Under the pieces are notes generated by a model. That model saw nothing but the letters and a program-made list of their open reading frames with translations. It did not search any database and was not told the origin of the DNA. Shown here piece after piece: positions 29,149-46,791 of a DNA stretch of 64,000 bases. The translations under genes and the position numbers were made by a program. This stretch comes from Parashewanella tropica (lineage in GTDB: Bacteria > Pseudomonadota > Gammaproteobacteria > Enterobacterales > Shewanellaceae), in assembly GCF_004358445.1 (NCBI RefSeq), contig NZ_CP037951.1, positions 3,483,001 through 3,547,000 of the forward strand, read 5' to 3'. Numbering within the stretch: the first letter of the stretch is position 1; every line of letters begins with the position of its first letter.

Positions 29149-29180
29149 CAGTGTTCCTATGTTTATGATATTTAGCTTTT

Positions 29181-30033: not shown

Positions 30034-30042
30034 GGTATGGCC

Positions 30043-31380: not shown

Positions 31381-31393
31381 CACTTACCTCTCA

Positions 31394-33451
31394 TTAAGCA
31401 TTCATGGCTTCATCAAGGGCTTCACCCACAAGATCAACGTGATCCAATACCTTAATCTCCACATCATCACCTAACTCTTGGTATGACAATACAGGGGTAT
31501 TAAACATATCTCTCTCGACAATTTTTCTTAGGTAACGACGAACATCCAGTGAGGTCAATAACGCACATTGCTGATTATCAGGTAATAAATCTTTTATGGC
31601 ATTAAGGATAAGTTGAGTTTGAGCACTATTAAGTACCGAGTATGATCCCGCTGTGGATTGGCGAATAGATTCTCGAATTAGATTTTCAATGCCTTCACCA
31701 ACCATAAGCGCAGATATCCAGCCTTGAGGAGTAGCAAATTTGCGTCTTATATGCCTTCTTAAGGCAATTCGTACATACTCGGTAAGCATGATGACATCTT
31801 TTTCTTTAGGAACCCATTCAACTAAGGTCTCAAAGATGGTCCGTAGGTCGCGAATAGAAATGCCTTCTTCGACTAAACGTTGAAGAATTTCCGCAACTTT
31901 ACCTACCGAGAGTAAGCGCTGTAACTCTCGAATAAGCTCGCCATATTTATTTTCCATGGCATCCATTAGGAAACGCGTTTCTTGTACACCAATAAATTCA
32001 CCAATATAACGGTCAACCACTTTGTTGATCAGACACGTTGGAATCGCTTCACCTTCAACAATCGTCAAATTTTGTTGCTTAGCTTCAGCAATTTGCGGCT
32101 CTTTTATCCAAAATAAATTTTGTCCATTAAATGCCATGGTTTCTTGTCTGGCTTCGATGTCGGTAAATGGTACATCGAGTAAGACTTCTTCAGGCTTAAG
32201 CTGAACTTGAAGTACAGGCTCTTGATATAAATGAATATCACATTGACCTTCAATGTCTTTTTTGACCACTTGCAGCTGAATTTCAGGTAAAGGAACACCT
32301 AATTTTTCAAATAATGCCCACCGTAAACGATGTAAGTTTTCTTTCATCCCCTGATGTGGAGTATCAGAGCCCAGATAAAGCATCAGTGGTACAGCACCAG
32401 GTTGCATTTTTGTATCATCAGAGGCTTCTTCGTCCCCTTCTGCAAACGGCACCGTTTCATCTCCGGCTTCACTTTGTTTTTGTTGCTTACGGCCTAACCA
32501 CCAGGTGGTAAAAAAGGTCAGAAAACCAAGCGAACCAAATACCCACCAAGGAAAACCTGGGATCACTGCAAAAGTGATCATGACTATGCCTGCCATTTGT
32601 AATGATGATGGCTGCTTAGTGATTTGATTAACGACTTCTTTACCTAAATTTTGTCTAGATTCACCTGGCACTCGAGTTACAATCAAACCGGCTGTAATCG
32701 AGATAAGTAGAGAGGGAATTTGTGCTATAAGCCCATCGCCTACAGATAGTATTGAATATGTATTTACGGCTTCTGATGCCGTCATTCCCTTTTGAAGTAC
32801 ACCAACGGAAATACCACCAATGATGTTTGTGAAGATAACGATAATACTGGCAATCGCATCACCTTTTACAAACTTCATAGCACCATCCATTGCACCATAA
32901 AGCTGACTTTCTTTTTGTACTTTTGCTCTGAGCTTTTTGGCTTCTTTTGCGTCGATCATTCCTGCACGCATATCACCATCAATACTCATTTGCTTACCAG
33001 GCATGCCATCCAATGAGAAACGAGCTGAAACTTCTGCCACACGCTCAGAACCTTTGGTGATCACGATAAACTGAACAATGGTTATAATGGCAAAGATAAT
33101 AATACCTACGGCCAAATTACCACCCACAACAAAATTACCAAAGGTAAATACGATTTCACCTGCATCGTGTTGAAGTAAGATCAAGCGACTGGTACTGATA
33201 GTTAACGCTAAGCGATATAAGGTGGTGACCAATAGCACTGATGGGAATACTGAAAATTCAAGTGGATCACGAATGTAAATTGCAATCATCAATAGCATGA
33301 CAGATAAAGCTAGGTTTATGGCAATCAACAGATCAACCAAAGGCGTAGGCAGTGGAATGATCATCATAAATACCGCCACCATGAGCATGACAGCTAAAAT
33401 AATGTCATGGCGTCCTGATATTTTATGAAGCCAGTTAGTGATCATGTTCAT
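31394..33451 (-). CDS. sctV: T3SS export gate protein SctV
   Basis: A 685-residue FlhA/YscV-family protein. About eight membrane helices span residues 15-320, with the conserved FHIPEP loop containing 'KGSERVAEVSARFSLDGMPGKQMSIDGD' as the landmark, followed by 'RAGMIDAKEAKK'. The C-terminal cytoplasmic domain (about 350-685) forms a nonameric ring that receives chaperone-substrate complexes. The start overlaps the ssaM-like stop codon as ATGA. It is the only export-gate membrane gene found in the window; its partners sctR, S, T and U are absent. Confidence 0.94.
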   Translation of the reverse strand: MNMITNWLHKISGRHDIILAVMLMVAVFMMIIPLPTPLVDLLIAINLALSVMLLMIAIYIRDPLEFSVFPSVLLVTTLYRLALTISTSRLILLQHDAGEIVFTFGNFVVGGNLAVGIIIFAIITIVQFIVITKGSERVAEVSARFSLDGMPGKQMSIDGDMRAGMIDAKEAKKLRAKVQKESQLYGAMDGAMKFVKGDAIASIIVIFTNIIGGISVGVLQKGMTASEAVNTYSILSVGDGLIAQIPSLLISITAGLIVTRVPGESRQNLGKEVVNQITKQPSSLQMAGIVMITFAVIPGFPWWVFGSLGFLTFFTTWWLGRKQQKQSEAGDETVPFAEGDEEASDDTKMQPGAVPLMLYLGSDTPHQGMKENLHRLRWALFEKLGVPLPEIQLQVVKKDIEGQCDIHLYQEPVLQVQLKPEEVLLDVPFTDIEARQETMAFNGQNLFWIKEPQIAEAKQQNLTIVEGEAIPTCLINKVVDRYIGEFIGVQETRFLMDAMENKYGELIRELQRLLSVGKVAEILQRLVEEGISIRDLRTIFETLVEWVPKEKDVIMLTEYVRIALRRHIRRKFATPQGWISALMVGEGIENLIRESIRQSTAGSYSVLNSAQTQLILNAIKDLLPDNQQCALLTSLDVRRYLRKIVERDMFNTPVLSYQELGDDVEIKVLDHVDLVGEALDEAMNA

Positions 33452-33810
33452 GAATCAGCTCCGTAACCAACCCTGTCTAAAAATTGTTGCTGCAACTTCA
33501 ACATTTGAAACCAATCTCTCCCTTCGCTGCTTGTAGGACACAAGCAACTGATCATCAGTTTTTGTTTTATTGAAAACAACCGCTGCGGTACACCCATGAA
33601 TATTTGAGGATGCCAACGAGCCAAACAGGGTTTTAAGTCCATAATTTGACCGTTTAATAGCCATGATGTCATCAATAAGCGTTCGTCTTTCATTTCCAAC
33701 ATCACGCCATAAGGCTCCCAGTGGTATTCCATTTGCTCATCAATGGTCACTGGCCACTTTTCAAGTAACTGAAACAATTCTTCCAACTTTCTGGATGAGC
33801 GCAGATCCAT
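33448..33810 (-). CDS. ssaM: SsaM-like secretion-hierarchy protein
   Basis: A protein of about 120 residues between sctW and sctV, the ssaM position of SPI-2. The C-terminal half, PQRLFSIKQKLMISC with a following WF..LK..Q..FL block, matches my memory of Salmonella SsaM (PQRLF, SC, then a W/L/Q-rich end). In SPI-2, SsaM works with SpiC/SsaB and SsaL to hold back effectors until translocators are exported. ATG 33810 is preferred because it gives an MDLR start like MDWD of SsaM; a TTG at 33822 is possible. No strong ribosome site is visible for either. Confidence 0.7.
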   Translation of the reverse strand: MDLRSSRKLEELFQLLEKWPVTIDEQMEYHWEPYGVMLEMKDERLLMTSWLLNGQIMDLKPCLARWHPQIFMGVPQRLFSIKQKLMISCLCPTSSEGRDWFQMLKLQQQFLDRVGYGADS

Positions 33811-33896
33811 GATAAATATCAATGCCTATATGTATGGAAATTAAACACTTTCATAAGCTTAGGACTTCTCAGAGAAAATGATAAATATTTCGTCCA

Positions 33897-34922
33897 TTAT
33901 TCTTCATCGCACCATTTATCCAGCAAATCCATCATGGCATCTGCTACATGTGATTGCTGCTCAGGATCACGAAAACAAGTATTTGGAATTTGCAGTAATA
34001 AGTCTCGCCAACGCCTAAGGAAGCTGATCTGTCTTTCTTCATCTAATATCAATGGCTTGATTTTGCCTTCCAGCCATTCGGCATAAACCCAAGATTGTTC
34101 AATCAACTCCAAACTGATTGACAGCACATCAGCGGACTTTACTTCAAAAGCGCGAGCCAACACATTACAGTGCTCTTCAATACTCATAAAAATCAGTAAC
34201 CGCCTTAAATCGTCGATCACAGTGACGATTTTCACCATGTCTGTGCCAGTGTTGTCCTCATTCAAAGAATTAGACAAGGCTCTGAGTAATACTCGTATCC
34301 TTTTACGTCTATCAGGCATATCTTTTAAATGGCTAAACCACTTTGCTAACCCAGCCTCTCCATGCTCTGCACGCTGGTAAAGACTTTTTAAACTTTCGAG
34401 TCCAGCTTGATCCAGTGGCAAGCCTTCCATTGCAGCAATCAAGGCCAGTTCGGCACCTTCTTCGGACAGTAATTCTTGAAGCTTTTTCCTTAGCTTTTCT
34501 TTTACTTGATTACTCATTTCTCCTGATGAGATAACGGTTGCTAGCAATAACATGACATTGCCTGCATCCATTTTCATTTGGCCTACTTTTGCCAAGATGG
34601 CATCACCATCATTTAATGCAGCTAATTCACTGGCTAAGGTCGCCATACCCTCTGCTTGTTCGCCTTCTAAGTTAGCGACTAACTCTTCGAGAGTATTTAA
34701 GCGAGTTTCGTCTTTTTGATTTTTACTGGAGAGTTTTTTTAGAAAATTACTTGCACCTAAGCCAATATCATCCATGGCTTCCTGCATGGATTCAGCTTGA
34801 ACTTCAGCAAATTCAGCAGCCGCTAAGGCCGCTGTATTATGGGCAGGATGCACTTGACCGTTAACTGATTGGTTTTCAGTTTGAGTGTTTAGGTTTACGG
34901 TATTAGCACCATCAATTCTCAT
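33897..34922 (-). CDS. sctW: T3SS gatekeeper SctW (SsaL/SepL/YopN-like)
   Basis: A 341-residue, helical, soluble protein with the length and position of SsaL. The Ala/Gln-rich N-terminal region and the LcrE/YopN-like core (about 75-330, with SLYQRAEHGEAGLAKWF and RRKRIRVLLRALS) fit the gatekeeper family. Gatekeepers bind SctV and order secretion of translocators before effectors. Together with the ssaB-like and ssaM-like genes, it would form the three-part calcium- or pH-sensing switch known in SPI-2. It starts 23 bp after sctL. Confidence 0.8.
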   Translation of the reverse strand: MRIDGANTVNLNTQTENQSVNGQVHPAHNTAALAAAEFAEVQAESMQEAMDDIGLGASNFLKKLSSKNQKDETRLNTLEELVANLEGEQAEGMATLASELAALNDGDAILAKVGQMKMDAGNVMLLLATVISSGEMSNQVKEKLRKKLQELLSEEGAELALIAAMEGLPLDQAGLESLKSLYQRAEHGEAGLAKWFSHLKDMPDRRKRIRVLLRALSNSLNEDNTGTDMVKIVTVIDDLRRLLIFMSIEEHCNVLARAFEVKSADVLSISLELIEQSWVYAEWLEGKIKPLILDEERQISFLRRWRDLLLQIPNTCFRDPEQQSHVADAMMDLLDKWCDEE

Positions 34923-34945
34923 AGAGGCGTTGTCCTAAATTTCAT

Positions 34946-35659
34946 TTAAGATTCAGCTTGAATCTCACTCTCTTGAGGTTGAGCTTCTTGCTCCTCCTTA
35001 GGCTCGTCATGGTGTTCAGTGGCCGACTTACTAATAAACACCTCTAATAAGGTCGATAAGTGCTGCTCTAAATCAATTCGAGCAGTTAGGGCTTTTGAGT
35101 GTAGCTCTGCACAACCTGCCCCTAAATGAGGATCGACTTTAATTGTGAATGTATCACTTAATAGCTCGGATAACTTAGGCTCATCTTCCGCGGACACTGA
35201 TAAGGTCAACACACCTTCTCCTACTTTTTCCACAACTTCTTGAGTCAGCCTTTGCGCTATCAATGTTGTATTTTCCTGCTCACCGGCCCATTGAGTGATA
35301 ACCCTTTGGATCTGCTCAGCAATTTTAGGCTGTAAGTCGTGTAATAGTTGTTCAGTAAACTCAGCTTCATCTTTTACCCACTGCACCACTTCAGCAATAA
35401 CGCTTTCTTGAGCTTGTTGCTGCCACTGTTCTAAGTTTTCTTGTGCTTGTAATTCAGCTTGTTTTAGCAGCTGTTCTGATTCAGCTCTAGCTTGCTCTCG
35501 TTGTTGATGGGCCTGTTGAAGCGCGTCTTGTATACGCTCTTTCACTTGCCTTTCCATATCTTGCAATTCAACAGACTGTTGCAATGACTCTGCTGTGACG
35601 AGTCGACTTTCACTTCGTAATACTTCACATGGTTCAACATTGATCATAAAGGCACTCAT
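34946..35659 (-). CDS. sctL: T3SS sorting-platform/ATPase regulator SctL
   Basis: A 237-residue FliH/YscL-type protein. A long Gln/Glu/Ala-rich coiled coil covers about 25-95, and a C-terminal globular domain about 100-210 binds the ATPase. The acidic tail ends with repeated Glu/Gln pairs. Its start overlaps the sctK stop codon as ATGA. SctL links SctN to SctQ in the cytoplasmic cage. In SPI-2 the same protein is named SsaK. Confidence 0.82.
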   Translation of the reverse strand: MSAFMINVEPCEVLRSESRLVTAESLQQSVELQDMERQVKERIQDALQQAHQQREQARAESEQLLKQAELQAQENLEQWQQQAQESVIAEVVQWVKDEAEFTEQLLHDLQPKIAEQIQRVITQWAGEQENTTLIAQRLTQEVVEKVGEGVLTLSVSAEDEPKLSELLSDTFTIKVDPHLGAGCAELHSKALTARIDLEQHLSTLLEVFISKSATEHHDEPKEEQEAQPQESEIQAES

Positions 35660-36315
35660 AGTAGACGCTCCAATCGAGTTAACCAGCGTGACATGCTTAT
35701 AGACTGTTTATCTAATGCTTTTAGTTGCGCAGTTAATGGTTTTGACAACTGCTCAGTATCCGTTGCAGGAAAAGTCATTAATAGGGCTCTCCATACAATG
35801 CTGTCTGTAAGTTCTTTTGAAAATTGAATGACGGCAACTTGTAATGCTGTTTTTACGATATCTTTCTCCGCGATATCGTTTATCACGGGTTTTAACTTAG
35901 AGGTCGGACGCTGAGGCCAAAGAGCCCATGCTTGTTGTATTTGCTCTGGCGCTAATACTGTTTGCAAAACTTCGCGATAGGATTTAAGAGATAAATAATC
36001 AGGACTGTTTAAACTATAAAGACCTAACACCAGTAGTAATTCAGTAAGCTTGTCTTTTCTTTGTATGAGTAAATTATCTTGTTCATTGAGTTTGGTAGGC
36101 ATGGGCTCATCAATCAACCCTGCACGACTCACTATCATTGTTTCAATACGATGCCCTAGTGTTGAGTGAGGCTGATATTTTCCTTGCCACGCTTGTACGC
36201 CAAGCTTTTGCCACCAACTAGGGTGCATGTTCGCCATTGGGCGCCAAATTAATTCAAAGCACTGGCGTAAAGCTAAACCAGTGTCACTCGTTGATGAAAA
36301 AAAATCCTCACTCAT
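35656..36315 (-). CDS. sctK: T3SS sorting-platform adaptor SctK
   Basis: A soluble protein of about 219 residues between sctJ and sctL, the position of yscK and of the unnamed SPI-2 reading frame after ssaJ. A Trp-rich N-terminus (RQCFELIWRPMANMHPSWW) and 'LGLYSLNSPDYLSLKSYREVL' resemble YscK/MxiK-type proteins that connect the inner ring to SctQ pods. ATG 36315 is favoured over GTG 36318, with AAGG about seven bases upstream. Identification is mainly positional. Confidence 0.68.
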   Translation of the reverse strand: MSEDFFSSTSDTGLALRQCFELIWRPMANMHPSWWQKLGVQAWQGKYQPHSTLGHRIETMIVSRAGLIDEPMPTKLNEQDNLLIQRKDKLTELLLVLGLYSLNSPDYLSLKSYREVLQTVLAPEQIQQAWALWPQRPTSKLKPVINDIAEKDIVKTALQVAVIQFSKELTDSIVWRALLMTFPATDTEQLSKPLTAQLKALDKQSISMSRWLTRLERLL

Positions 36316-36344
36316 CACGCACCCTTAAGTTCTCAGTCAGGCCG

Positions 36345-37070
36345 CTAAGACCTTCTTCGTATCCACATAACCCCAACTAGACTCAGCAAGAAAATCAATG
36401 ACAAACCAATAACGGCTGGCATTTTATTTTCTTCTATAACAGAGACAACTTCTGACCACATATCCTCGTCTTTAAGAGGTGGAGCAGACTGATAGCCGTA
36501 ATTGGCCGCTTGCAAGAACACAGTTATGCGTTCGTAACTTAAACCAGGTACAGCATTTTGAACCAAACTTTTAATCTCATTTTCTTGAGTCGATAAATTA
36601 GCCTGTGGAGAATACTTGATGTAAACCGAAGCTGATTTTTGCTGCTGGGTTTGAAATTGGTCTTCTTGAGTCGGCTCAGCGATTGAAACTCTGGCACTGA
36701 TCACCCCTTCAATATTGGATAAAGTTCGTTCCAGTTGCTGCTCTTTTAAGAAAGCAATTTTTGCTTCTTCTTGAGCTGGCGAAGTAACCAATTGACCCGA
36801 TGGAAATAAATCCTCAATGTTGGCATATTTGGGCCTTGGTAAACCATTTTGCCTTAATAACGCCACAGCATTGATGAATTTGTGTTCATCAATCATCAAG
36901 GTAGCCATACCCGATTTATCGTCAATCTTTGTCGTAGCACCAATATCATTCAACCTCAACAAGGCCACCATTTGGTTCGCCTCTTCCTGAGATAAATTAC
37001 GATAAAGCTCAACTTTACATCCAGCGAGTACAAGAATAAGCGGTAAAAGTAATAAAAATCGAATTCTCAT
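36345..37070 (-). CDS. sctJ: T3SS inner-membrane ring lipoprotein SctJ
   Basis: A 241-residue YscJ/PrgK/SsaJ-family protein. Its lipoprotein signal ends in LAGC with Cys18 as lipid site. The periplasmic ring-building domains contain the family signature 'ELYRNLSQEEANQMVALL', then 'PRPKYANIEDLFPSGQLVTSP'. A C-terminal membrane helix lies at about 213-236. It overlaps sctI by four bases. Full length and intact. Confidence 0.92.
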   Translation of the reverse strand: MRIRFLLLLPLILVLAGCKVELYRNLSQEEANQMVALLRLNDIGATTKIDDKSGMATLMIDEHKFINAVALLRQNGLPRPKYANIEDLFPSGQLVTSPAQEEAKIAFLKEQQLERTLSNIEGVISARVSIAEPTQEDQFQTQQQKSASVYIKYSPQANLSTQENEIKSLVQNAVPGLSYERITVFLQAANYGYQSAPPLKDEDMWSEVVSVIEENKMPAVIGLSLIFLLSLVGVMWIRRRS

Positions 37071-37426
37071 TGCATGCTCGCCAACTTGTTGATGGATTGA
37101 GATAATGAACCCGCTATTTTGGCAAATAAATCAACCTCAATAACGGCTTTTGTAATGTGACGCTGCCCTTCTAAAGCGGCAAGTGGCGACATGCTGTGCC
37201 CTAACTTATTAGCTTGAAGTGGATCTGGATTACCCAATTTATTGATCAGCTCGTTGTCATTTCCATTCGCTTCTAATTGAGCGGCTTGCTTTAAATCACC
37301 TGAGCCCATATTTAGTAATTCTTGAAATTTAGCCGCAAGCTGGTGATTAGCTTTTGGTTCATCCTTTGTAAGCTGTTTATTTTTATTGATTTCAGCAAGT
37401 TGTCTTATTGTTTCTAAGTTAGGCAT
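37067..37426 (-). CDS. sctI: T3SS inner rod protein SctI
   Basis: A 119-residue protein immediately before sctJ with a strong AGGAGG ribosome site. The C-terminal 'VDLFAKIAGSLSQSINKL' matches the rod-forming helix of SsaI/YscI-type proteins; the N-terminal two thirds is hydrophilic. It polymerises under the needle and influences substrate switching. It is longer than SsaI (about 82 residues, as I recall). Confidence 0.78.
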   Translation of the reverse strand: MPNLETIRQLAEINKNKQLTKDEPKANHQLAAKFQELLNMGSGDLKQAAQLEANGNDNELINKLGNPDPLQANKLGHSMSPLAALEGQRHITKAVIEVDLFAKIAGSLSQSINKLASMQ

Positions 37427-37438
37427 GTTTACCTCCTA

Positions 37439-37744
37439 TCACTCAGATAAAGTGGTAATCTGCTGATTTAACGCAACATCTTTACCTGAGTTGTTCATCC
37501 TTGAACCTGAGAAAATAACGTATAAAGCTTTGCCAGAATCACTATTACAAGCTTGTAATTGCTCTAGCGCCCCTGAAACATCATTTAGTGCAAAATAAAT
37601 AATGCTAGTACAAATGCGCCTATCTTCCTCATCTTCGATCAGATCAGGAAACACTTTAACAATGGCATAAGACTCTTTTTCTAAGCCATGATTTGCAGCA
37701 GCAAGTGCGGCTTCTACCAGCAATTTTTTGTGTTCACTTTCCAT
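37439..37744 (-). CDS. sctG: T3SS needle chaperone-like protein SctG (SsaH-like)
   Basis: About 101 residues, all helical, located between the needle and rod genes exactly as ssaH/escG/yscG. The TPR-like pattern 'ALAAANHGLEKESYAIVKVFPDL' then 'CTSIIYFALNDVSGALEQL' is typical of YscG/HrpB1-type needle chaperones that prevent early needle polymerisation. ATG 37744 is preferred over the upstream TTG. An unrelated C-terminal tail of about 25 residues follows. Confidence 0.72.
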   Translation of the reverse strand: MESEHKKLLVEAALAAANHGLEKESYAIVKVFPDLIEDEEDRRICTSIIYFALNDVSGALEQLQACNSDSGKALYVIFSGSRMNNSGKDVALNQQITTLSE

Positions 37745-37776
37745 AATCAACTGTTATTCCTAACTATTGTTAATGA

Positions 37777-37992
37777 TCAAATTTTGGCGATAATGCCTTG
37801 GATCATGTCTTTAATTGATTTGATGATGGCACTCTCATAGCCGACAAAATTGGAATATTGTTGGATCGCGAATTGAGCCTTTAGCATTTTATCTGGGTCA
37901 TTAATGTCCCCAGATTGCATATTGCCTTGAATGTCTTTTGCTGACTGTGCAGACATTTCAGACAACTGACTGACTACCGTACTTAAGTCCAT
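37777..37992 (-). CDS. sctF: T3SS needle subunit SctF
   Basis: A 71-residue protein, the exact length of SsaG as I recall. It has the helix-turn-helix of MxiH/YscF/SsaG needles: a turn at 'GDINDPDKMLKAQFAIQQYS' and the final helix 'YESAIIKSIKDMIQGIIAKI'. A strong AAAGGAG ribosome site precedes it, as expected for an abundant structural subunit. It begins the basal-body part of the cluster after the araC-type gene. Confidence 0.88.
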   Translation of the reverse strand: MDLSTVVSQLSEMSAQSAKDIQGNMQSGDINDPDKMLKAQFAIQQYSNFVGYESAIIKSIKDMIQGIIAKI

Positions 37993-38005
37993 ATTTAGTA
38001 CTCCT

Positions 38006-38704
38006 TTAATTCACGCTACTTCTAAGTGTAGTTGGACAACAGGAATATCGCTTTTTAAATGCATCGGTAAAATGTGCGTGATTACTAAAGCCACTGTCTA
38101 AAGCAATATCAGCGATTTTTTTGTCGGTTCCTAACAACTGCTGCCTAGCAAAACTAAGCCTCCTATCTTGCAACCACTTTTTGGCCGAGACGCCATAGTT
38201 CTTATAAAAGATAAAATTGAGTTTCCTCACATCTACGTTTAAATCTTCAGCAAAGCGATTAACAGGCCAAGGCCTCATAAAATTAGTTTCTATATAACGC
38301 AATACTTCATCGTTATAAGCTAAAAAGTATCTGAATAAGATAGAGAAATAAGCTTTGTCCATGCTAAGGCAATAAATGAATACAAACTTCATTAGCATTT
38401 CACGGTTAGAAATGAGCTGCTCAAACACTTTAACTAGATTCTGGTATACAGGAATTACTTTTATTTCATCTACCTTGAAGTGCTTCAACTCATTGTTTGT
38501 ATCAATCAGCTCTGATACTTCGTTATAGAGAGCGTGTAATTCTCCCGGATAGCAAAATACACTCAACCAGCAATCACGACTGATTGCTGATGCTCTTACA
38601 TCTTCAGAAGTCACAATGAGTTGATTGGCTTCAATCTCAAGAACTTCCTCCCCACGATGTAACTTTCCTGGTTGCTTAAAAAGCAGTATTTGGATCGCGC
38701 TCAT
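38006..38704 (-). CDS. AraC-family transcriptional regulator within the T3SS cluster
   Basis: A 232-residue protein. The C-terminal AraC/XylS DNA-binding domain covers about 135-230 (NRFAEDLNVDVRKLNFIFY, then DKKIADIALDSGFSNHAHFTDAFKKRY with the second helix-turn-helix). The N-terminal half is divergent, as in VirF/ExsA/InvF-type virulence activators. It lies between the filament gene and the needle gene, 13 bp before sctF, where SPI-2 carries translocator and effector genes. It likely activates T3SS operons. A hairpin separates it from the filament gene. Confidence 0.85.
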   Translation of the reverse strand: MSAIQILLFKQPGKLHRGEEVLEIEANQLIVTSEDVRASAISRDCWLSVFCYPGELHALYNEVSELIDTNNELKHFKVDEIKVIPVYQNLVKVFEQLISNREMLMKFVFIYCLSMDKAYFSILFRYFLAYNDEVLRYIETNFMRPWPVNRFAEDLNVDVRKLNFIFYKNYGVSAKKWLQDRRLSFARQQLLGTDKKIADIALDSGFSNHAHFTDAFKKRYSCCPTTLRSSVN

Positions 38705-38773
38705 GCAACAAGCCTTTCCTCATCAATTGAAACTATCTTATCTTTGAGTGTAATTAAGCTGAACGAGCGCGAT

Positions 38774-38793
38774 AATCAGGTAAACCCCTGATT
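38774..38793 (-). terminator. hairpin between the filament and araC-type genes
   Basis: AATCAGG and CCTGATT form a 7-bp stem with a 6-base loop, 23 bp after the filament stop codon on the minus strand. There is no T run, so it may cause partial termination or mark a transcript-processing point. Confidence 0.4.
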
Positions 38794-38815
38794 TTAGTTA
38801 TTGGTGTTGATATTA

Positions 38816-39391
38816 TTAGCGAATATTCTGGGCGATACTTTTATTCATCTCTGAAAGTAAAGTTTGCATGCTATTGATTAAGCTAACGAGCACGTTATAA
38901 GTTTGCAGAATTTTTTGCAGTTGTAACTGTTGCTGAGAGACAAAATCTGAAGCTTTATTTGAAGCGGTATCAAGGGCGTTTTTAACGGCTGTTAACTGGG
39001 TATTGTTAAGCTTGCCACCGTGTTTTTTAATATAATCGTCAATGCCCATTCCATCTACGGTAAGGTTAGCTTGGCGAGCAAAATCTAAAATATCAGGTTG
39101 TAAAGCAACGGTAGCATCGCTACCTTGATGACTGAGATCCGAAATTTGTTCATCAACTTCGTTAGACATCGTATGTGCATCACGAGAGAAATTGGCTTTA
39201 GCCGTGAGCATTTTGTATTTGTCATTAGCCTGTTCAGAAAACATGTTCATGTTGTTGTAAAGGGTATTAATACCATTCGAAAAGACAGAATCCCCGCTAA
39301 GGGTGGCTCCACCATCAAAGTGATCCGACTCTGATTGTTCAAAGCTTGTTTTTAATGCGCCTCCAAGGCCACTAATATTATTCGTCCCCAT
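38816..39391 (-). CDS. EspA/SseB-like T3SS filament (translocon) protein
   Basis: A 191-residue protein, close to EspA (192) and SseB (196) in length. The C-terminal helix 'QKILQTYNVLVSLINSMQ', ending with 'EMNKSIAQNIR', is the coiled-coil polymerisation region of the EspA family, and the N-terminal 'NGINTLYNNMNMFSEQANDKY' fits the first helix. EspA-type proteins form a sheath extending the needle to the host surface and occur in the SPI-2/LEE class. It follows its likely chaperone and has a good AAGGA site. No EspB/EspD (SseC/SseD) pore proteins follow. Confidence 0.8.
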   Translation of the reverse strand: MGTNNISGLGGALKTSFEQSESDHFDGGATLSGDSVFSNGINTLYNNMNMFSEQANDKYKMLTAKANFSRDAHTMSNEVDEQISDLSHQGSDATVALQPDILDFARQANLTVDGMGIDDYIKKHGGKLNNTQLTAVKNALDTASNKASDFVSQQQLQLQKILQTYNVLVSLINSMQTLLSEMNKSIAQNIR

Positions 39392-39425
39392 ACCCCATCC
39401 TTAGGCATTTACGCTACTGCTAATA

Positions 39426-39830
39426 TTATAGATAACTTCTGACTTTTTTCTTTTTTGTCTTGGGCTTATCACTCTTTTCATCAACTTCAGATTCTGACGG
39501 TTCAGTCGCCTCAGTATTATTGGTAATGATTGGTACAGACGCTTCTTCATCACCAATATCTGTAAATTGTTGCTCGAGCTTTTTAAAGTTTTGCCCCAGC
39601 TCATTCACTTTATCCATGACCTTTTGCTGCTGTTGATCAAACCCTTGTGGAAACGCTTTTTGCAAACGGATCAATTTTTCTCTGGCCTCTGGATCCGTTT
39701 TTGCCCTTTGCATCAAAGAACGAATCTCAGCCTGAAGTGATTGGAACTCTTGAATTTGATGATTAATGGCTTCTTTTCGATGTTGAATATCATTCATCAC
39801 CGCTTTTAAATCTTGCAACATATCGTTCAT
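39426..39830 (-). CDS. SseA-like T3SS chaperone
   Basis: About 134 residues. Start ATG 39830 is chosen because AAGAGG lies six bases upstream and it avoids a 53-bp overlap with the gene before; the open frame extends up to 39893. It is a charged coiled-coil protein containing the FPQG motif in a context like that of Salmonella SseA ('LQKAFPQGFDQQ', then 'LGQNFKKLEQQF'). SseA/CesA chaperones stabilise EspA/SseB and its partner. An added Lys-rich acidic tail of about 40 residues is unusual. It lies directly before the filament gene. Confidence 0.68.
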   Translation of the reverse strand: MNDMLQDLKAVMNDIQHRKEAINHQIQEFQSLQAEIRSLMQRAKTDPEAREKLIRLQKAFPQGFDQQQQKVMDKVNELGQNFKKLEQQFTDIGDEEASVPIITNNTEATEPSESEVDEKSDKPKTKKKKVRSYL

Positions 39831-39840
39831 AGGATGCCTC

Positions 39841-40056
39841 TTAACCTGATTTCTTTTTAGAAACACGCTTTTTAAAGCGTTTATGTAAGACATTTACTAC
39901 ATTTTCTGCTGCATCTACGGCTTCAAGTAGTGCCGCCTTATTTTTCTCTTTAGAATTCAATAAAGCCTGCTTCATATCCTCAAGTTGAGTTTGATAGTGT
40001 TCTTTAGGATATTTTCGAGCTCGAATATTATCTTCTAATTTAGTAATTCTCGGCAT
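39841..40056 (-). CDS. ssaE: SsaE/EscE-like small T3SS protein
   Basis: A 71-residue helical protein after sctD, the ssaE position of SPI-2. 'ITKLEDNI' near the start and 'ALLEAVDAAENVVNVLHKRF' match the pattern I recall for SsaE (TRLEDLL ... LLEAIEQAENIINII). SsaE/EscE is a co-chaperone for the needle subunit with the SctG protein, though SsaE has also been linked to translocator handling. It has an excellent AAGGAGG ribosome site. The Lys-rich end overlaps the open frame of the next gene but not its likely start. Confidence 0.72.
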   Translation of the reverse strand: MPRITKLEDNIRARKYPKEHYQTQLEDMKQALLNSKEKNKAALLEAVDAAENVVNVLHKRFKKRVSKKKSG

Positions 40057-40066
40057 GTATTCCTCC

Positions 40067-41275
40067 TTATAGCAGTAGTGGTATGTGAATCACTTGCCCA
40101 CTCTTACTTAAATCAATTCCGTTAATATCGATAAACTTGATGACATATCCACTGGCGATTTCACTGCCTTGAGATAGCCTGACTCCGTTTTCAAGTTCAA
40201 TAAAGGGGTCATCCCGACTGCCGCCAAAACTCACAATGGCGGACGTTAAAATTCGATTCACTTCATTGCGAACAGGGATATTTTGAAATACTAATTTTGT
40301 GCCGCTTTGTTGGATAGGCTTTAATGAACGAGCCGCTTTCATCACCTGTTCTTCTACTTTACGGTCCACTTCGCCAGTGATTACAATCGCTTCATCCAGT
40401 TGAGTTAACATCAAATTAGCCAGCAGATTTTGTTTGCGAAGCTCATCTATTAAGGTTTGCAATTGGACACCAGATTGATTCACTACATGCCAACTCATTA
40501 ACCCTGAAATGCTCTTAAGCATTTTAACGGCTTTATCCCATTCTTCTCCGGCTTGAATAGCACCGGTTATGGTAACGCTGCCTGGAGTCGGATCTTGTGT
40601 CACCGTGACATTTTTGAAGCCACTTTGCCCGAGAACTTGTCTAACATCCGTCACCAGTTGATCAGTACATTCAGCATGTTCCACAAATAAAATGCCATGG
40701 TTTTTCACTTCTTCAATAAATTGGGCTAACTTCCTTGAGTCATCACAAAAACCATTGAAGGTAACAACACCATTGTCTGACCAAATAGCTTTGATGCCAT
40801 CAAGCTCATTTAATGTTAGACGCTGTGAGACCCACTCCTGAGGAGTAACTTCATGCTGAGGTGCTTCAACTGGATCGATTAATAACACCAAAATTAATAT
40901 CGCCGAAAACGTTGATAACCCTATCAATAATAAATTTGAAGCACGCTTTTTGGTAAGTTTACGTTTAGGAATGTCCTGCTTTTGAATATCTTCAGTACCG
41001 AGCCCTAGAATAAAAGCAATGCCTTCAATCTCGATGACTGAGCCTAAAGGGATTTCAGTAATGGCTTCATCTGGCTTTATTCCATCAATCCAAACTGGCG
41101 CTTGTGTGATAAGTTCAACCTTTTCCTCACCAACATTAAATTCAATGAGTTTAACTTTATCCAATACCGCCAGCACATCACCGTCTTCCCCAACAGTAAA
41201 TGTACCTTCAGGAATAACTAGTTGTCGTCCTGAAAGTGGACCGTTTAACCATAATATTTTGAATTTTGACGGCAT
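40067..41275 (-). CDS. sctD: T3SS inner-membrane ring protein SctD
   Basis: A 402-residue protein, about the length of SsaD (403 as I recall). The N-terminal cytoplasmic FHA-like domain covers about 1-95 (FKILWLNGPLSGRQLVIPEGTFTVGEDGD). One membrane helix lies at about 112-132, then periplasmic ring-building repeats at about 140-345. It forms the outer of the two inner-membrane rings around SctJ. It follows sctC by 7 bp. The ribosome site is weak. Confidence 0.88.
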   Translation of the reverse strand: MPSKFKILWLNGPLSGRQLVIPEGTFTVGEDGDVLAVLDKVKLIEFNVGEEKVELITQAPVWIDGIKPDEAITEIPLGSVIEIEGIAFILGLGTEDIQKQDIPKRKLTKKRASNLLLIGLSTFSAILILVLLIDPVEAPQHEVTPQEWVSQRLTLNELDGIKAIWSDNGVVTFNGFCDDSRKLAQFIEEVKNHGILFVEHAECTDQLVTDVRQVLGQSGFKNVTVTQDPTPGSVTITGAIQAGEEWDKAVKMLKSISGLMSWHVVNQSGVQLQTLIDELRKQNLLANLMLTQLDEAIVITGEVDRKVEEQVMKAARSLKPIQQSGTKLVFQNIPVRNEVNRILTSAIVSFGGSRDDPFIELENGVRLSQGSEIASGYVIKFIDINGIDLSKSGQVIHIPLLL

Positions 41276-41282
41276 ACTCTAC

Positions 41283-42755
41283 TCATTGAATTACAGGTTC
41301 AGCTTTGATCAAAAATAATCGCATAACACTTTGACGTTGATGTCCTGTTGACCGAAACAATCCACCCACAAGTGGTAAGTCACCTAATAAGGGTAGTTTG
41401 TTTTTTGTCTCTTCGTCTTTATCTTGAACAAATCCCCCAATCAGTAAGCTTTCTCCTGACTTTAACGTTGCTTGAGTCGAGATTTCAGAGTTTTGCACCT
41501 GAGGTAAGCCATCACTACCTGCAACCACAGCACCTTGTTGTCCATCTTGAATATTGAGCACGAGATTTACCGCTTTGTGACCATGATCAATGATCATTCT
41601 TGGTGTAACTCTGAGTAATGAACCTGTCGTAACTGACTTTAAATCCGCCACTTTTTCGCCGGATACCTTGGTGTAAAAGGTAACGTTTTTATCTAATACT
41701 GCTTGGACATTATTTAAAGTCACAACTGAAGGACGTGATAGCACTTTAGCTTTTGAGTTTCTCTGTAACGCATTTAGCTTTACCATGAAACTCCCAGTAT
41801 TTCCTATTACTGAAGAAAAGCTACCACCTGCCGAGCCAGCACTACTGGGACCACCATCCGAATTAAAGCTGATACTTCCTCCACCTAATTTTGCAGAAGC
41901 TGACCACTCCACTCCTAGTTGATTAAAATTAGAAGCATCAACGTCAAAGATAGATACGGAAATTTCTATCATGATGGGTTTGACATCTAACTGCTTGATG
42001 ATAGAAGAATAGGTTTTTTGTTCCTGAGTACTGCCTTTAACTATTATTGCATTTTGCCTAGGGTCCGCCGCAAAGGTAGGCCCAGTAGATGTGTTTGCAG
42101 AGCCTTTTAAATTCTTACTCATCTCTTGCAGCACTGTAACTAAGCCAGGAACAACGACATCTTGAGTACGATAACTGTATTTGGAATCACTGGCAGAAGC
42201 ATAGTTGAGTTTATAAACTTTAACTTCTTCATGGTTGACTGCTGCTTGCTGTGCGCTGGCATCAAGTTTTTCAGTAAGTTTGCTGACAGTACTGATGCAA
42301 ACAGGCACACCGACTAGTTGGACGCTGGCAATATCGGCAGCAGGCCGAATGTTACACGCTTTTTTATCAAGCACACCGGCGTTAGTTAAATATCGAGTCA
42401 CATCAGCTGTAGAGATATTATTTAAGGGTAACACTTCATTCTCTAATTCACTGGTTTTGTAAACATAGAGAACATCCGTGTTGTAGTACCAGACAAGGCC
42501 ATATTGTCGACTCAGCTGAGTGATCACTTGCAAAGGAGTCTTATTTTGAATTCGACCATTGAATTGATCGGTTATCTTGGCACTGATCACTACAGGAATA
42601 CCGTAATTACTACCAAACTCCTGAAGCACTGAGGCTAAAGGTGTACCTCGACTGATCATGACAAATGGATCCCCTTGCCATTGAATATCCTTCAACGGTG
42701 CAGCAATCGCTCCTGTCATAAAACATAAGAAAAACAATCCTATCAGTGTTCTCAT
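41283..42755 (-). CDS. sctC: T3SS outer-membrane secretin SctC
   Basis: A 490-residue secretin with a signal peptide (MRTLIGLFFLCFMTGAIAA). N-terminal N-domains cover about 20-180 and the membrane-pore domain about 240-485, with the secretin landmark 'KLPLLGDLPLVGGLFRS' near the end. Length is close to SsaC/EscC. It makes the outer-membrane ring through which the needle passes. Its start overlaps the preceding ssaB-like stop codon by four bases, so the two are coupled. No pilotin gene was recognised nearby. Confidence 0.93.
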   Translation of the reverse strand: MRTLIGLFFLCFMTGAIAAPLKDIQWQGDPFVMISRGTPLASVLQEFGSNYGIPVVISAKITDQFNGRIQNKTPLQVITQLSRQYGLVWYYNTDVLYVYKTSELENEVLPLNNISTADVTRYLTNAGVLDKKACNIRPAADIASVQLVGVPVCISTVSKLTEKLDASAQQAAVNHEEVKVYKLNYASASDSKYSYRTQDVVVPGLVTVLQEMSKNLKGSANTSTGPTFAADPRQNAIIVKGSTQEQKTYSSIIKQLDVKPIMIEISVSIFDVDASNFNQLGVEWSASAKLGGGSISFNSDGGPSSAGSAGGSFSSVIGNTGSFMVKLNALQRNSKAKVLSRPSVVTLNNVQAVLDKNVTFYTKVSGEKVADLKSVTTGSLLRVTPRMIIDHGHKAVNLVLNIQDGQQGAVVAGSDGLPQVQNSEISTQATLKSGESLLIGGFVQDKDEETKNKLPLLGDLPLVGGLFRSTGHQRQSVMRLFLIKAEPVIQ

Positions 42756-43150
42756 GTTCGCATTCTCATTTCAAATTTCGGTTTTTTTTCAACTGTTTTT
42801 TTAAACCCTTTTTCAAGGTATTGTGCAATTGCAAGCTGCACTGCCACGGCTTTTTTTAACGCTTTGTCATCCAATGACTCATCGTAGTGGCACCAAAGCT
42901 TCCACACTTCATTATCTAACTGCAAGCTACTGTCTTGACCACCATCAAAAGCGGCAAGTACTAACGTGGCTTTATGAACCCACAAACTTTCCTCATGAGT
43001 TTCATAACTTGGTTTAAGCTCCAGAGCTATCGACAACAAGGATTGATGTTCGAGCACCGTAGCTTTTCGATCGGATAATTGCCATTGATCTGATTTTGGG
43101 CTGGGTACTTGAGACTTTAATAACCCCAATTTAATTAACTGCTGTAGCAT
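42752..43150 (-). CDS. ssaB: SsaB/SpiC-like protein
   Basis: A 132-residue protein directly before sctC, the position of ssaB/spiC in SPI-2 and mpc in LEE. The middle 'HKATLVLAAFDGGQDSSLQL', followed by a W..CHYDES stretch and a C-terminal helix, resembles the 'VTLLLAAHPDVHDYAIQL' pattern I recall for SpiC, with the same total length. SpiC binds SsaM and SsaL to control the order of secretion. No signal peptide. It is the first gene of the long minus-strand operon; its promoter should lie in the 286-bp gap shared with the kinase gene. Confidence 0.65.
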   Translation of the reverse strand: MLQQLIKLGLLKSQVPSPKSDQWQLSDRKATVLEHQSLLSIALELKPSYETHEESLWVHKATLVLAAFDGGQDSSLQLDNEVWKLWCHYDESLDDKALKKAVAVQLAIAQYLEKGFKKTVEKKPKFEMRMRT

Positions 43151-43436
43151 GTCATCACCACACCCATTACATTATTAAATGTATCGAGAAGCATTTCATT
43201 GAACCATCAGGTATTAACCCGACTTTTCTAAATTGAAAATCCCTCAAATAACCAAATACTTTGAGCTAATAACACTCATTAATTCAGCCAGCTTTCATTT
43301 AGTATATGTGAAAATTAAAAACTTGAAGGACAATTGCATTATTTGCGCACGGGTTATCCCAGTTTGAAGACATGAGCGACAAATTTGTTCTAAGCTCTAA
43401 TGGTTATTTTGACACGGCAAATGAATCAAATTATTA
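43151..43436. promoter_or_regulatory. divergent promoter region, T3SS operon / sensor kinase
   Basis: A 286-bp AT-rich gap between the divergent ssaB-like and kinase genes. It must hold the promoter of the long T3SS operon and that of the kinase. I could not pick out a reliable SsrB-type palindrome or -35/-10 pair by eye. Confidence 0.5.
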
Positions 43437-43793
43437 ATGAAAAAGCTGTCTTTGGTATCAACACTAACAATTAGCACAATTACTTTGTGCTGCTTCTGGT
43501 GGTCTTTAGTTGAGTACCAAAATTATCACCAATCGATACAGCAACAGGAAAAAAATACCTTAAAACAACATACACTGATCCAAAAACTCAATACCGAAGT
43601 GGTCAATGGATTTTTACAAAGAGTAAAAAGGGATCTTCAAGAATACGCTGATACTATTCCACATATCAGCTATAAAGGAAAAATAACGGCCAATGTGTAT
43701 CACTACATAATTGGTGCCCCCCCCCTTCTTCCTTTGCGAATCACAAGCGTTTCTTTCAAAAAAACGTCTCGAAGTACTACAACACCTTACTAA
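43437..43793 (+). pseudogene. N-terminal fragment of SsrA-like sensor kinase, cut by a C9 frameshift
   Basis: A 118-residue frame with an N-terminal membrane anchor (about 5-25, ISTITLCCFWWSLV) and the start of a periplasmic sensor domain. It reads into nine C residues at 43717-43725 and then into nonsense 'LRITSVSFKKTSRS' before a stop. One added C, or two fewer, would join it to the frame at 43820 through 'SSFANHKRFFQKNVSKYYNT', which is open and protein-like with no stop. The joined product would be about 901 residues, close to Salmonella SsrA (920 as I recall). So this is one gene split by slippage or by a sequence error. Confidence 0.75.
43717..43725. repeat. homopolymer tract of nine C
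   Basis: (C)9 lies inside the periplasmic-sensor coding part of the kinase gene, at the exact point where the reading frame changes from that of 43437 to that of 43820. Tracts of this length are prone to slipped-strand mispairing and to sequencing error. Confidence 0.9.
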
Positions 43794-43819
43794 TCAAAAC
43801 CCCGAGAACCATTGAGATC

Positions 43820-46141
43820 TTGAGTCGTATTCCATTATCAGAATTACAGCAACAATCTTTAATAAAGCAGTTTAGGCAAAACTCATCTACACCGAGTAAT
43901 TCTGTAAAATGGCAAGGTGTTAATAACTCAAAGTCGACTTTGCTTTTGGCTAGTATCTTCAATCCAAAATCAAAATCCACTTACGGAGTAACAGTCGATA
44001 TCGCTCCTATTATGGCTAAACTGAAGCATCAACTTGAGAGGCAGCATGTTCTTTTATTGTCTCCTAATCAGAAACTTATTCCTTCTGTCCCTACACCTTT
44101 AAAACAATGGCTACTCAAACAGCTTCAACTTTCAGAAACTTCAAACCAGATAATAAAAAATCATCGTACAAATACCCTTTATTTAATTTCAAAACTTAAC
44201 CAAAGTGATTGGGGCCTAATCAGTTATTTTCCTAAACAAGAAGGGAATACAGCAGCAAAAATGTTTTTTTTGAATAAGCTTCCAAAAGCCTTAGGTTTAC
44301 TTTTCATAATGACCTTGCTTTTAATACTGCTATTTTATGTTCTTCTGAAACGCCCTTTAGCCAGATATGTAGACATTATTCGTGATAGGAAGACCCCTGC
44401 TCTAAAGCGACATTTACCCACTCACTATGGTGAAGAGTTTTCAGAAATAGCCGAAGCGTACAATGAGCTTTTAGATAACGTTCAACGCCACCAGCAGGAA
44501 CTCGAATTTTTGGTAGAGGAACGTACTCATGATTTATTGGCGGCATCGAAAAAAGCTGAGCTTGCCAATCAACGTAAAACGGAACACTTAACCAGTATCA
44601 GCCATGAAATCCGCACTCCTCTAAATGGAATTTTAGGTGTGCAAGAACTATTACTCAGCAGTCACACTTCACCTCGACAAACCAAATTAATTCGAACCGC
44701 TATTGATTGCGGCTATTCCTTATTGTCCTTAGTCAATAATTTACTCGACTTTTCTCGGATTGAAGCCCAAGAAATTGAGCTTAAACCTTATCGATATTCA
44801 ACGCTTAAAATCGTTGACGAAGCAATGTCCAGCATTGCTTCACAAGCCCAAAGTAAAGGTATTGTTCTCGTTGTGACGGTAAATAAAACAGTGCCTGAGT
44901 TTGCCAAATTCGATCCAGAAAGAGTTCGACAAATCTTAATCAATCTATTAGGTAATGCCATTAAGTTTACCGATAGCGGCTACATTTCCTTAAGCATCAC
45001 TTATTTCAAACAGCAAATAAAATACCGTGTAAAAGATTCCGGCAATGGTATTAAAGACAGTGAACTCAGCACCATTTTTGAACCTTATGTCCAAGGCCAT
45101 CACCATAAGATTGGCTCAGGGTTAGGACTACCCATTGCGAGAAAACTGGCTCGATTAATGGGAGGCGATATTATTGCTAAAAGTCGCATTGAGCATGGCG
45201 CTTCGTTTTCTCTAAAGATCCCAGTGGAGGCCCCTGAATCGAGTATTCTATTACAAAACAGTTTTATTCCTGCCCCCAATCATTTACATCCTCAACTCAA
45301 AGCGTGGGGAGCAAACCCTACACCTCCAGAGGAAAATCAATTATCGGCTCCTGAGCTGCAATATTTACCAGATAAACTCTTACAGTATTGCCGTGAAATT
45401 CAGCACGATGTGCCACACTTTGCTCAAAGTACTCTGCCGCCACTATTGCCGTGGAAATTAAAAGTGTTAGTGGTTGACGATGTCGATATTAATCGTGAGA
45501 TTATGTCTCAAATGCTGCTTGAGCTGGGTCAATCAAGCTATACGGCTTCAGGCGCTAATATGGCTATAGCGATGGGACGTAAGCACATTTTTGATTTAAT
45601 TTTGATGGACATTCGTATGCCTGATATTGATGGCTATCAAGCGACAGCAATGTGGCGTAGCGATGAACAAATTCTCGATAATGCCTGTCCAATTTTCGCA
45701 CTGACCGCTAATGCCGAATCCTTTTCTGATGAGCAACTCACTGCCACTGGCATTAATCATTATTTAGTCAAACCCATCTCATTGCGAAGCTTAAATAAAG
45801 CACTTGAATTAGCGGCCGAATTTCAGCTCGAAAGAGACGTTCAACCCACGATAAATTCAGAAGCAGACACACCGTTGATTGACGTATTGCAAAGCGATTT
45901 AAATCAAAAGCTATACAGTCAGCTTACTGAGATGTTGTTATCACTGAAGACTTCCATTGAAAGTAAAAATTGGCAACTGGTTAGCCATTGGCTTCACACG
46001 CTCAAGGGCACTTCTGGATTGGCGGCATTAAAAGAGATTGAACGTGAAGTATCTGAGTTAGAACTCATTCTTGAACAACAAAACAGTTTAAGCCTTCCTC
46101 AACTCAAGCAGCTCAATCAACTGATCAAAGCTGTTGAATGA
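43820..46141 (+). CDS. SsrA-like tripartite hybrid sensor histidine kinase (main part)
   Basis: 773 residues from a TTG at 43820; the frame is open upstream to the C9 tract, so the true protein probably starts at 43437. The rest of the periplasmic domain covers 1-155, a membrane helix 155-176 and a HAMP-like linker 177-230. The kinase core has His262 in 'TSISHEIRTPLNGI' and an ATP lid 'GSGLGLPIARKLA'. A receiver domain has Asp597 in 'LILMDIRMPDIDGY', and an Hpt domain has His726 in 'HWLHTLKGTSG'. This layout is that of SsrA. It is divergent from the T3SS operon and converges on the SsrB-like gene with 5 bp between them. Confidence 0.85.
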   Translation: MSRIPLSELQQQSLIKQFRQNSSTPSNSVKWQGVNNSKSTLLLASIFNPKSKSTYGVTVDIAPIMAKLKHQLERQHVLLLSPNQKLIPSVPTPLKQWLLKQLQLSETSNQIIKNHRTNTLYLISKLNQSDWGLISYFPKQEGNTAAKMFFLNKLPKALGLLFIMTLLLILLFYVLLKRPLARYVDIIRDRKTPALKRHLPTHYGEEFSEIAEAYNELLDNVQRHQQELEFLVEERTHDLLAASKKAELANQRKTEHLTSISHEIRTPLNGILGVQELLLSSHTSPRQTKLIRTAIDCGYSLLSLVNNLLDFSRIEAQEIELKPYRYSTLKIVDEAMSSIASQAQSKGIVLVVTVNKTVPEFAKFDPERVRQILINLLGNAIKFTDSGYISLSITYFKQQIKYRVKDSGNGIKDSELSTIFEPYVQGHHHKIGSGLGLPIARKLARLMGGDIIAKSRIEHGASFSLKIPVEAPESSILLQNSFIPAPNHLHPQLKAWGANPTPPEENQLSAPELQYLPDKLLQYCREIQHDVPHFAQSTLPPLLPWKLKVLVVDDVDINREIMSQMLLELGQSSYTASGANMAIAMGRKHIFDLILMDIRMPDIDGYQATAMWRSDEQILDNACPIFALTANAESFSDEQLTATGINHYLVKPISLRSLNKALELAAEFQLERDVQPTINSEADTPLIDVLQSDLNQKLYSQLTEMLLSLKTSIESKNWQLVSHWLHTLKGTSGLAALKEIEREVSELELILEQQNSLSLPQLKQLNQLIKAVE

Positions 46142-46146
46142 GCAAC

Positions 46147-46791
46147 TTACCTCAAACCTAATCTATCCGCCCATGAGATCAATTCTGCGACATTATGGGC
46201 GTTGAGTTTGCGCATTAAATTAGTCCGATGGCTTTCAACTGTTTTCAAGCTGATCACTAGAGCCTCAGCCATATCCCGATTTCTCAAACCTTCGCAAATT
46301 AAGCCTAACACCTGTTTTTCTCTATGAGTCAATGTTGGAAGGTCGTGGGTTTCTGTATCAAAGGCATGAATTTGCTGCTCATCTAGGCTGGGATCAATAA
46401 AGGTTTTTCCTCTGATCACGGTTTTAATGGCAGCAAATAGTGTGGATTTAGGACTATTTTTTAACAAATATCCGTTGGCCCCAATATCTAATGCTTCTCG
46501 TGCTGTTTTTTCTTCAGCAACAGCCGTGAGCATAATAATCAGAATTTCTGGCCAACGGTTTTTGAGCTGTCTGACAACTTCAATGCCATTCATTTTTGGC
46601 AATCTGAAATCCATAAAGACAAGATCGGGCTGTAAAGACAGACATTCTTGATATACGGAAAGTCCATCTTCGACAAAGCCAACTAACTGCATATCAGGGT
46701 AAGGAGCCAAACAACTACTGAGCCCGTCGTAAATGAGGGAATGATCATCTACGACTAAAATTCTTAAAGGTTTGTTGGACTCAAAAGACAT
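46147..46791 (-). CDS. SsrB-like NarL/FixJ-family response regulator
   Basis: A 214-residue regulator: receiver domain about 8-125 with phospho-acceptor Asp61 (VFMDFRLPKMNG) and Lys near 111 (YLLKNSP), then a LuxR-type helix-turn-helix about 150-210 (LTHREKQVLGLICEGLRNRDMAEAL). Size and the C-terminal 'SLKTVESHRTNLMRKLNAHNVAELI' closely resemble Salmonella SsrB, the master activator of SPI-2. It probably receives phosphate from the adjacent kinase and controls the T3SS. In Salmonella ssrA and ssrB are co-directional; here the two genes converge. AGGAGA precedes the start. Confidence 0.85.
   Translation of the reverse strand: MSFESNKPLRILVVDDHSLIYDGLSSCLAPYPDMQLVGFVEDGLSVYQECLSLQPDLVFMDFRLPKMNGIEVVRQLKNRWPEILIIMLTAVAEEKTAREALDIGANGYLLKNSPKSTLFAAIKTVIRGKTFIDPSLDEQQIHAFDTETHDLPTLTHREKQVLGLICEGLRNRDMAEALVISLKTVESHRTNLMRKLNAHNVAELISWADRLGLR

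What the first reader, a model, noticed from the sequence alone, without database searches (positions are those of the whole stretch)
43437..46141. SsrA-like kinase gene split exactly at a run of nine C: possible phase-variable T3SS switch
Two frames (43437-43793 and 43820-46141) together make a full hybrid kinase of about 901 residues. The frame changes at (C)9 (43717-43725), and the downstream frame stays open back to the tract. With 9 C the kinase loses its anchor and sensor start; with 10 or 7 C it would be whole. A slipping tract in the master T3SS sensor could turn the system on and off in subpopulations. Transcriptional slippage could also restore some product. A sequencing error is the plain alternative.
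Basis: partly seen in the sequence, partly recalled or inferred. Interest (0 to 1): 0.8.

Follow-up and report, generated by a model that had tools for sequence, protein, structure and literature searches.

The report
Secretion-system sensor gene split at C-run
In this bacterium the gene for the sensor that probably controls its type III secretion system is broken exactly at a run of nine C; the break looks recent and could be a real, possibly reversible slip of DNA copying or a base-counting error, and no evidence yet shows that it is an evolved on/off switch.

Summary
Nine C (43717-43725) lie where an SsrA-type hybrid kinase gene changes frame. Against the intact Parashewanella curva orthologue, the upstream frame aligns up to 43715 and the downstream frame from 43739 to 46138. 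All four congeners searched have the gene open, without a C run of six or more in those loci. The neighbouring regulator and T3SS frames align to P. curva over nearly full length.

The tract is one of three C/G runs of nine in this genome, about what chance gives (0.8-4.1 expected). Two of the three split a gene: this kinase and a nuclease-like gene. In five Parashewanella genomes 4 of 16 coding runs of nine or more look split. In 264 kb, 215 homopolymers showed no in-gene frame break, but only 6 were C/G.

Best reading: a recent slipped-strand indel in a chance C run, leaving the sequenced isolate without a complete sensor, like the bvgS mutants of Bordetella. A miscount at C9 is the main rival. 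An evolved phase-variable switch is possible but unsupported: the tract is not shared by relatives, and there are no read or population data. Slippage-rescued expression is unlikely.

The parts
43437..43793 (+). Upstream fragment of the SsrA-type kinase: first hydrophobic segment (43446-43511) and start of the periplasmic sensor domain; past the tract this frame is not the conserved one
43717..43725 (+). Run of nine C at the change of frame, inside the sequence for the periplasmic domain
43820..46141 (+). Downstream fragment from its first start codon (TTG); the frame is open from 43676. Rest of periplasmic domain, second hydrophobic segment (about 44288-44350), HisKA 44576-44767, HATPase_c 44912-45229, receiver 45464-45805, Hpt 45911-46135
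46147..46791 (-). SsrB-type response regulator (NF011896 over its cut-off); 92-93% identical to P. curva
28285..43150 (-). SPI-2-type T3SS cluster (SctN, SctV, SctC, SctD, SctJ, SctI, SsaH and SseB over at least one cut-off; SctQ-, SctW-, SctL-, SseA-, SpiC-like and one further apparatus frame by weaker or domain matches; an AraC-type regulator; three frames without a family), aligned over nearly full length to P. curva

Best explanation
A run of C arose by chance in the fast-evolving periplasmic part of the ssrA-type gene of this species. DNA polymerase slippage on it changed its length by a number not divisible by three. The sequenced isolate therefore makes a short membrane-anchored peptide and, at best, a weakly started kinase fragment without the first anchor. 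It is a recent loss-of-sensor variant that may revert at the rate at which C9 runs slip. It works like the bvgS C-run mutants of Bordetella pertussis, but as an accident of a mutable run rather than a conserved switch. Shown: the tract, the frame change at it, open orthologues, a complete-looking T3SS neighbourhood, long-term purifying selection on both pieces. Inferred: that the count of nine is real, that slippage caused it, that it is reversible, and that the T3SS is under-expressed.
For: Frame change bracketed to 43716-43738 by the P. curva orthologue. 4 of 4 congeneric orthologues open (913-947 codons stop to stop; 899-929 aa) without a C run of six or more in those loci. No further frame break in the 800 downstream codons aligned to P. 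curva, and dN/dS of 0.20 upstream and 0.075 downstream (dS near saturation), so the break is young. A second gene of this genome, nuclease-like by eye, at C1:658417-658425, is split at another C9. 4 of 16 coding C/G runs of nine or more in five Parashewanella assemblies look split, in three of the five. No in-gene frame break at 215 homopolymers of 6-9; T8 at 44264-44271 in the same gene keeps frame. Precedent: bvgS (PMC1891110, passages).
Against: No reads, no second strain and no sequencing method are known; the break rests on one assembly. Nine is the longest C/G run in this genome, and the accuracy control hardly covers it: of the 215 runs tested only 6 were C/G (four of six, one of seven, one of eight bases), and only one run was nine long, of A or T. 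mutS is open over full length, so no mismatch-repair defect is seen there. For two of the four split genes (L131, L136) the split rests on ORF layout and codon scores alone. GeneTack authors expect singleton frame breaks backed by a homologue to be sequencing errors rather than real indels (PMC3711429, passages).
Confidence: 0.47

Rival explanations
1. The assembly miscounts the C run; the gene is whole in the living isolate.
For: C9 is at the limit of what many platforms count well (recalled). Two of the three C9 runs in this genome break a gene, while five of eight C8 runs lie in continuous frames of genes recognised by eye; a length threshold for miscounts would give this. The T3SS frames and the response regulator are kept. 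GeneTack authors take homologue-backed singleton breaks for sequencing errors rather than real indels (PMC3711429, passages). The C/G part of the accuracy control is only 6 runs.
Against: 215 homopolymers of 6-9 with coding sequence on both sides in 264 kb gave 207 in the same frame; the 8 others, at 6 places, are gene ends or borders. The third C9 is in a frame whose tail beyond the run matches P. curva. Apparent splits at C9 also occur in two other assemblies of the genus.
Confidence: 0.33
2. An evolved phase-variable (contingency) locus: the tract toggles the T3SS sensor on and off in subpopulations.
For: Tract at the frame change, in the sensor of a costly system; bvgS is a direct precedent for a sensor kinase. 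A second gene, nuclease-like, is split at a C9 as well. P. curva, though not at this gene, holds 11 of the 23 C/G runs of nine or more found in the genus, which may be more than chance; that was not tested with its own composition.
Against: Tract absent in 4 of 4 congeneric orthologues. No excess of long C/G runs in this genome. No C or G run of six or more at the nuclease locus in the two relatives examined. No data on variation within a population.
Confidence: 0.15
3. The split gene is expressed through transcriptional or ribosomal slippage at the C run, or by re-initiation at a start codon after the first fragment.
For: Shigella T3SS genes, mxiE among them, use transcriptional slippage (PMC5009743, one passage). 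The TTG at 43820 begins 26 bases after the first frame's stop codon.
Against: The slippage studies seen concern A/T runs (listing, passages). No structure beyond chance just downstream (z 0.73). Only weak start contexts (TTG 43820, ATG 44012; no clear ribosome site by eye). The orthologues need no such device.
Confidence: 0.05

Closest known systems
bvgS of Bordetella pertussis (C6/C7 run in a sensor kinase gene)
   Same: Sensor kinase that governs virulence-type functions, truncated by a length change of a C run in the coding sequence (PMC1891110, passages).
   Different: In bvgS both lengths and mixtures of them are documented (same passages); here one assembly only, a run of nine in the periplasmic part near the 5' end, and no variation data.
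SsrA/SsrB of Salmonella SPI-2 (NCBIfam NF011874/NF011896; the names SsrA and SsrB for these models are recalled)
   Same: Same family hits, kinase beside the regulator and an SPI-2-type T3SS.
   Different: The NF011874 cut-off (852 bits) is missed even by the four intact congeneric orthologues (798-846 bits): a diverged relative. No report of a phase-variable SsrA showed in the titles and abstract starts (10 of 14 papers listed).
MxiE and other Shigella T3SS genes decoded by transcriptional slippage
   Same: T3SS regulator gene with a repeat at a frame change.
   Different: Shigella uses the slip to make product (PMC5009743, one passage); its runs are A/T (recalled). Here C, and no sign of programming.

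Membership tests
SsrA-type sensor kinase | Best match to NF011874 along the whole protein | tested here: met
   Pieces hit profile 5-86 and 156-913 of 921 as best family.
SsrA-type sensor kinase | Score over the curated cut-off of 852 bits | tested here: not met
   Downstream piece 777 bits; intact congeneric orthologues 798, 815, 846, 845 bits. Hence 'SsrA-type', not SsrA proper.
SsrA-type sensor kinase | HisKA, HATPase_c, receiver and Hpt domains | tested here: met
   Four Pfam domains over cut-off.
SsrA-type sensor kinase | Next to an SsrB-type regulator and SPI-2-type T3SS | tested here: met
   NF011896 295 bits over cut-off 242; SctC NF011873, SctV NF009363 and SctN NF005295 over cut-off.
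Simple-repeat phase-variable locus | Mutable repeat placed so that its length sets the reading frame | tested here: met
   C9 lies at the frame change.
Simple-repeat phase-variable locus | Repeat kept in relatives | tested here: not met
   0 of 4 congeneric orthologues have a C run of six or more in the fetched locus.
Simple-repeat phase-variable locus | Genome enriched in long repeats of this kind | tested here: not met
   3 C/G runs of nine or more against 0.8-4.1 expected. P. curva has 11, not tested against its own expectation.
Simple-repeat phase-variable locus | Frequent, reversible length change within a population | not testable with these tools
   No reads or second strain.
Programmed transcriptional or ribosomal slippage | Conserved slippery site with stimulating signals | tested here: not met
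   Site not conserved; no unusual structure in the 90 bases downstream.
Programmed transcriptional or ribosomal slippage | Both products made | not testable with these tools
   No RNA or protein data.

The most novel reading that the evidence does not exclude
The C9 run is a working phase-variable switch of an SPI-2-type T3SS in a marine host-associated bacterium (habitat recalled), so that sensor-less and sensor-bearing cells coexist, perhaps together with an independently switching nuclease-like protein, in a genus where long C runs often break genes.
Probability: 0.15. Interest if true: 0.7.

Novelty: new member of a known kind. Interest (0 to 1): 0.35.

Why it matters
If the run varies in living populations it would be a second bvgS-like case, here at an SPI-2-type secretion system outside the classical pathogens. 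If it is a fixed loss, it shows how easily a sensor is lost through a chance C run while the injection machine is kept. If it is a miscount, it warns that C9 runs make false pseudogenes in this genus.

Tried and rejected
Old, degenerate pseudogene: rejected as the main reading, because there is no second break in the 800 downstream codons aligned and the substitution pattern is that of a selected gene. Decaying T3SS: no sign of it; the frames of the cluster align to P. curva over nearly full length, and further parts have candidates elsewhere in the genome, as in the other four genomes of the genus. Assembly-wide homopolymer errors: not seen, with a thin C/G part. Mutator through mutS: not seen; mutL was not examined. 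Long C/G runs as a genome-wide repertoire: not enriched in this genome; P. curva has 11 of the 23 runs in the genus, not tested further. RNA structure in the 90 bases after the tract: none beyond chance. Two weaker cases found no homologue in the other genomes of the genus: the first frame at the C8 run L111 and the second frame at the G9 run L136. Papers that name the genus: 12 listed; one opened, where the genus stands only in tables; nothing seen on how this genome was sequenced.

Full report
Source. The window lies in a one-contig genome of 4,222,191 bases. No call named the species of the window. The marine habitat is recalled.

Observation. With the intact P. curva frame as query, tblastn places residues 29-116 on the upstream frame at 43449-43715 and residues 124-923 on the downstream frame at 43739-46138. 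The C run lies in the gap. The three more distant orthologues give the same order of frames: G003 matches the upstream frame to 43724 and the downstream frame from 44207; G001 and G002 to 43664 and from 43772. NF011874 is hit by both pieces in order, the upstream one weakly.

What the fragments hold. The upstream piece has one hydrophobic segment (43446-43511). The downstream piece has one (about 44288-44350) and HisKA, HATPase_c, receiver and Hpt domains. If anything is made from the downstream frame it starts at a TTG or a later start codon without a clear ribosome site (by eye), and it lacks the first anchor and about a hundred residues of the sensor part.

Surroundings. The SsrB-type regulator lies at 46147-46791 and the SPI-2-type T3SS genes at 28285-43150. 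Their stop-to-stop frames align to P. curva over nearly full length, at 70-97% identity. For parts not in the window, second SctU-type (PF01312) and SctR-type (PF00813) genes lie together near 30 kb and an SseC-type gene near 537 kb. That the pair near 30 kb belongs to the T3SS and not to the flagellum is inferred from the two copies of each; the other four genomes also have at least two copies of each and an SseC match. So the machine seems kept while the sensor gene is split.

Relatives. Of 60 genomes searched (this one included), 58 had some match, but only the four congeners reach orthologue level (E below 1e-200). Of the 55 outside the genus 53 matched; the best has E 3e-49, around the kinase core. 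All four congeneric genes are open (923, 947, 913, 913 codons) and code for 899, 929, 912 and 912 aa. None of the four loci shows a C run of six or more; L006 and L007 have a G6 elsewhere. The scan of genome contigs returned 76 loci, of which only P. curva matches at orthologue level (75% identity, E 0; the next in the list has E 3e-58).

Is the run special? By models of order 0 to 3 from 264 kb, 0.8-4.1 C/G runs of nine or more are expected in the genome; 3 are there, none longer. So the run is ordinary; its place is not. Of the three, the kinase run and the run at 658417-658425 split a gene. The run at 927359-927367 lies inside one frame whose P. curva counterpart (65%, with one TAG inside) matches up to residue 522 of 526, that is past the run. 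The second split gene is nuclease-like by eye (no family search was made). It matches open frames of 898 and 893 codons in P. curva and in G003. Those align to one frame before the tract, ending 22 to 28 bases short of it, and to another frame from 25 bases after it; the relatives carry the first part twice, this genome once. Neither relative has a C or G run of six or more in that locus.

Genus view. The five genomes hold 23 distinct C/G runs of nine or more: 3 each in G000, G001, G002 and G003, and 11 in P. curva. By ORF layout I count 16 inside genes. Twelve lie within one continuous frame (L118, L120, L124, L127, L128, L129, L130, L133, L135, L138, L139, L140); in five of these (L118, L127, L128, L129, L133) the run is about 30-55 codons from the frame's end, where a shifted tail is not excluded by layout. 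Four are split (L122 and L132 in this genome, L131 in G003, L136 in P. curva). Seven are outside genes or unclear (L119, L121, L134, L142, L158, L159, L160). The kinase and nuclease splits are backed by homology. The second frame of L136 found no homologue in the other genomes and L131 was not searched, so those two rest on overlapping long frames and codon scores. The eleven runs of P. curva may exceed chance; its own expectation was not computed.

Accuracy control. In the window plus ten 20-kb stretches, 215 homopolymers of six to nine had confident coding sequence on both sides: 207 in the same frame, 8 not. The 8 lie at 6 places, all at gene ends or borders by ORF layout. This is nearly an A/T test: 209 were A/T (three of eight, one of nine bases) and 6 were C/G (four of six, one of seven, one of eight), all 6 in the same frame. 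The kinase run itself did not pass the score filter. Among the eight C8 runs of the genome five lie in continuous frames of recognisable genes (L104, L110, L113, L116, L117; by eye), one lies outside genes (L112) and two are undecided (L105, L111). So no general indel problem shows, but C9 itself is hardly tested.

Age. Against P. curva, dN/dS is 0.20 for the upstream piece, 0.075 for the downstream piece and 0.049 for its cytoplasmic part; eight neighbouring genes give 0.015-0.075; dS is near saturation. The kinase thus evolves as fast as or faster than its neighbours, mostly in the periplasmic part (46% identity against 84%). Selection held both pieces in frame for most of the time since the split from P. 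curva. The break is recent, transient or not real.

Weighing. A real slip without an evolved switch (0.47) is favoured over a miscount (0.33), because apparent breaks at C9 recur in three assemblies and the rest of the sampled assembly is clean. Recoding (0.05) lacks a fitting site. The precedent is bvgS (PMC1891110, passages). GeneTack authors expect homologue-backed singleton frame breaks to be sequencing errors rather than real indels (PMC3711429, passages), which speaks for the miscount. Searches of the open-access library for phase variation of SsrA or of T3SS regulators (titles and abstract starts only, listing 10 of 14) showed no report of a phase-variable SsrA; most subscription papers are not held.

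Noticed in passing
G000 C1:658417-658425 (L106, L148): A second gene, lamin-tail/endonuclease-I-like by eye, is split at a C9 run; P. curva and G003 have open frames of 898 and 893 codons, which carry its first part twice.
   Followed up: partly
L136:1501-1509 and L131:1501-1509: In P. curva and in G003, long frames of unknown function also seem to change frame at C/G runs of nine.
   Followed up: partly
P. curva (G004), 11 places: P. curva holds 11 of the 23 C/G runs of nine or more in the five genomes of the genus, perhaps more than chance.
   Followed up: no
L159:1083-1091: A C9 run in P. curva within a sequence that looks by eye like the 3' end of a tRNA or tmRNA gene.
   Followed up: no
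L111:1501-1508: A C8 run in this genome between two short overlapping frames; the first has no homologue in the other genomes of the genus; possibly another split gene.
   Followed up: partly
window 28285-46791; G000 C1 near 30 kb and 537 kb: The T3SS genes appear spread over at least three places in this genome; the other four genomes also have second SctU/SctR-type copies and an SseC-type gene.
   Followed up: partly
window 43739-44281: The periplasmic sensor part of the kinase evolves much faster (46% identity to P. curva) than the cytoplasmic part (84%).
   Followed up: no
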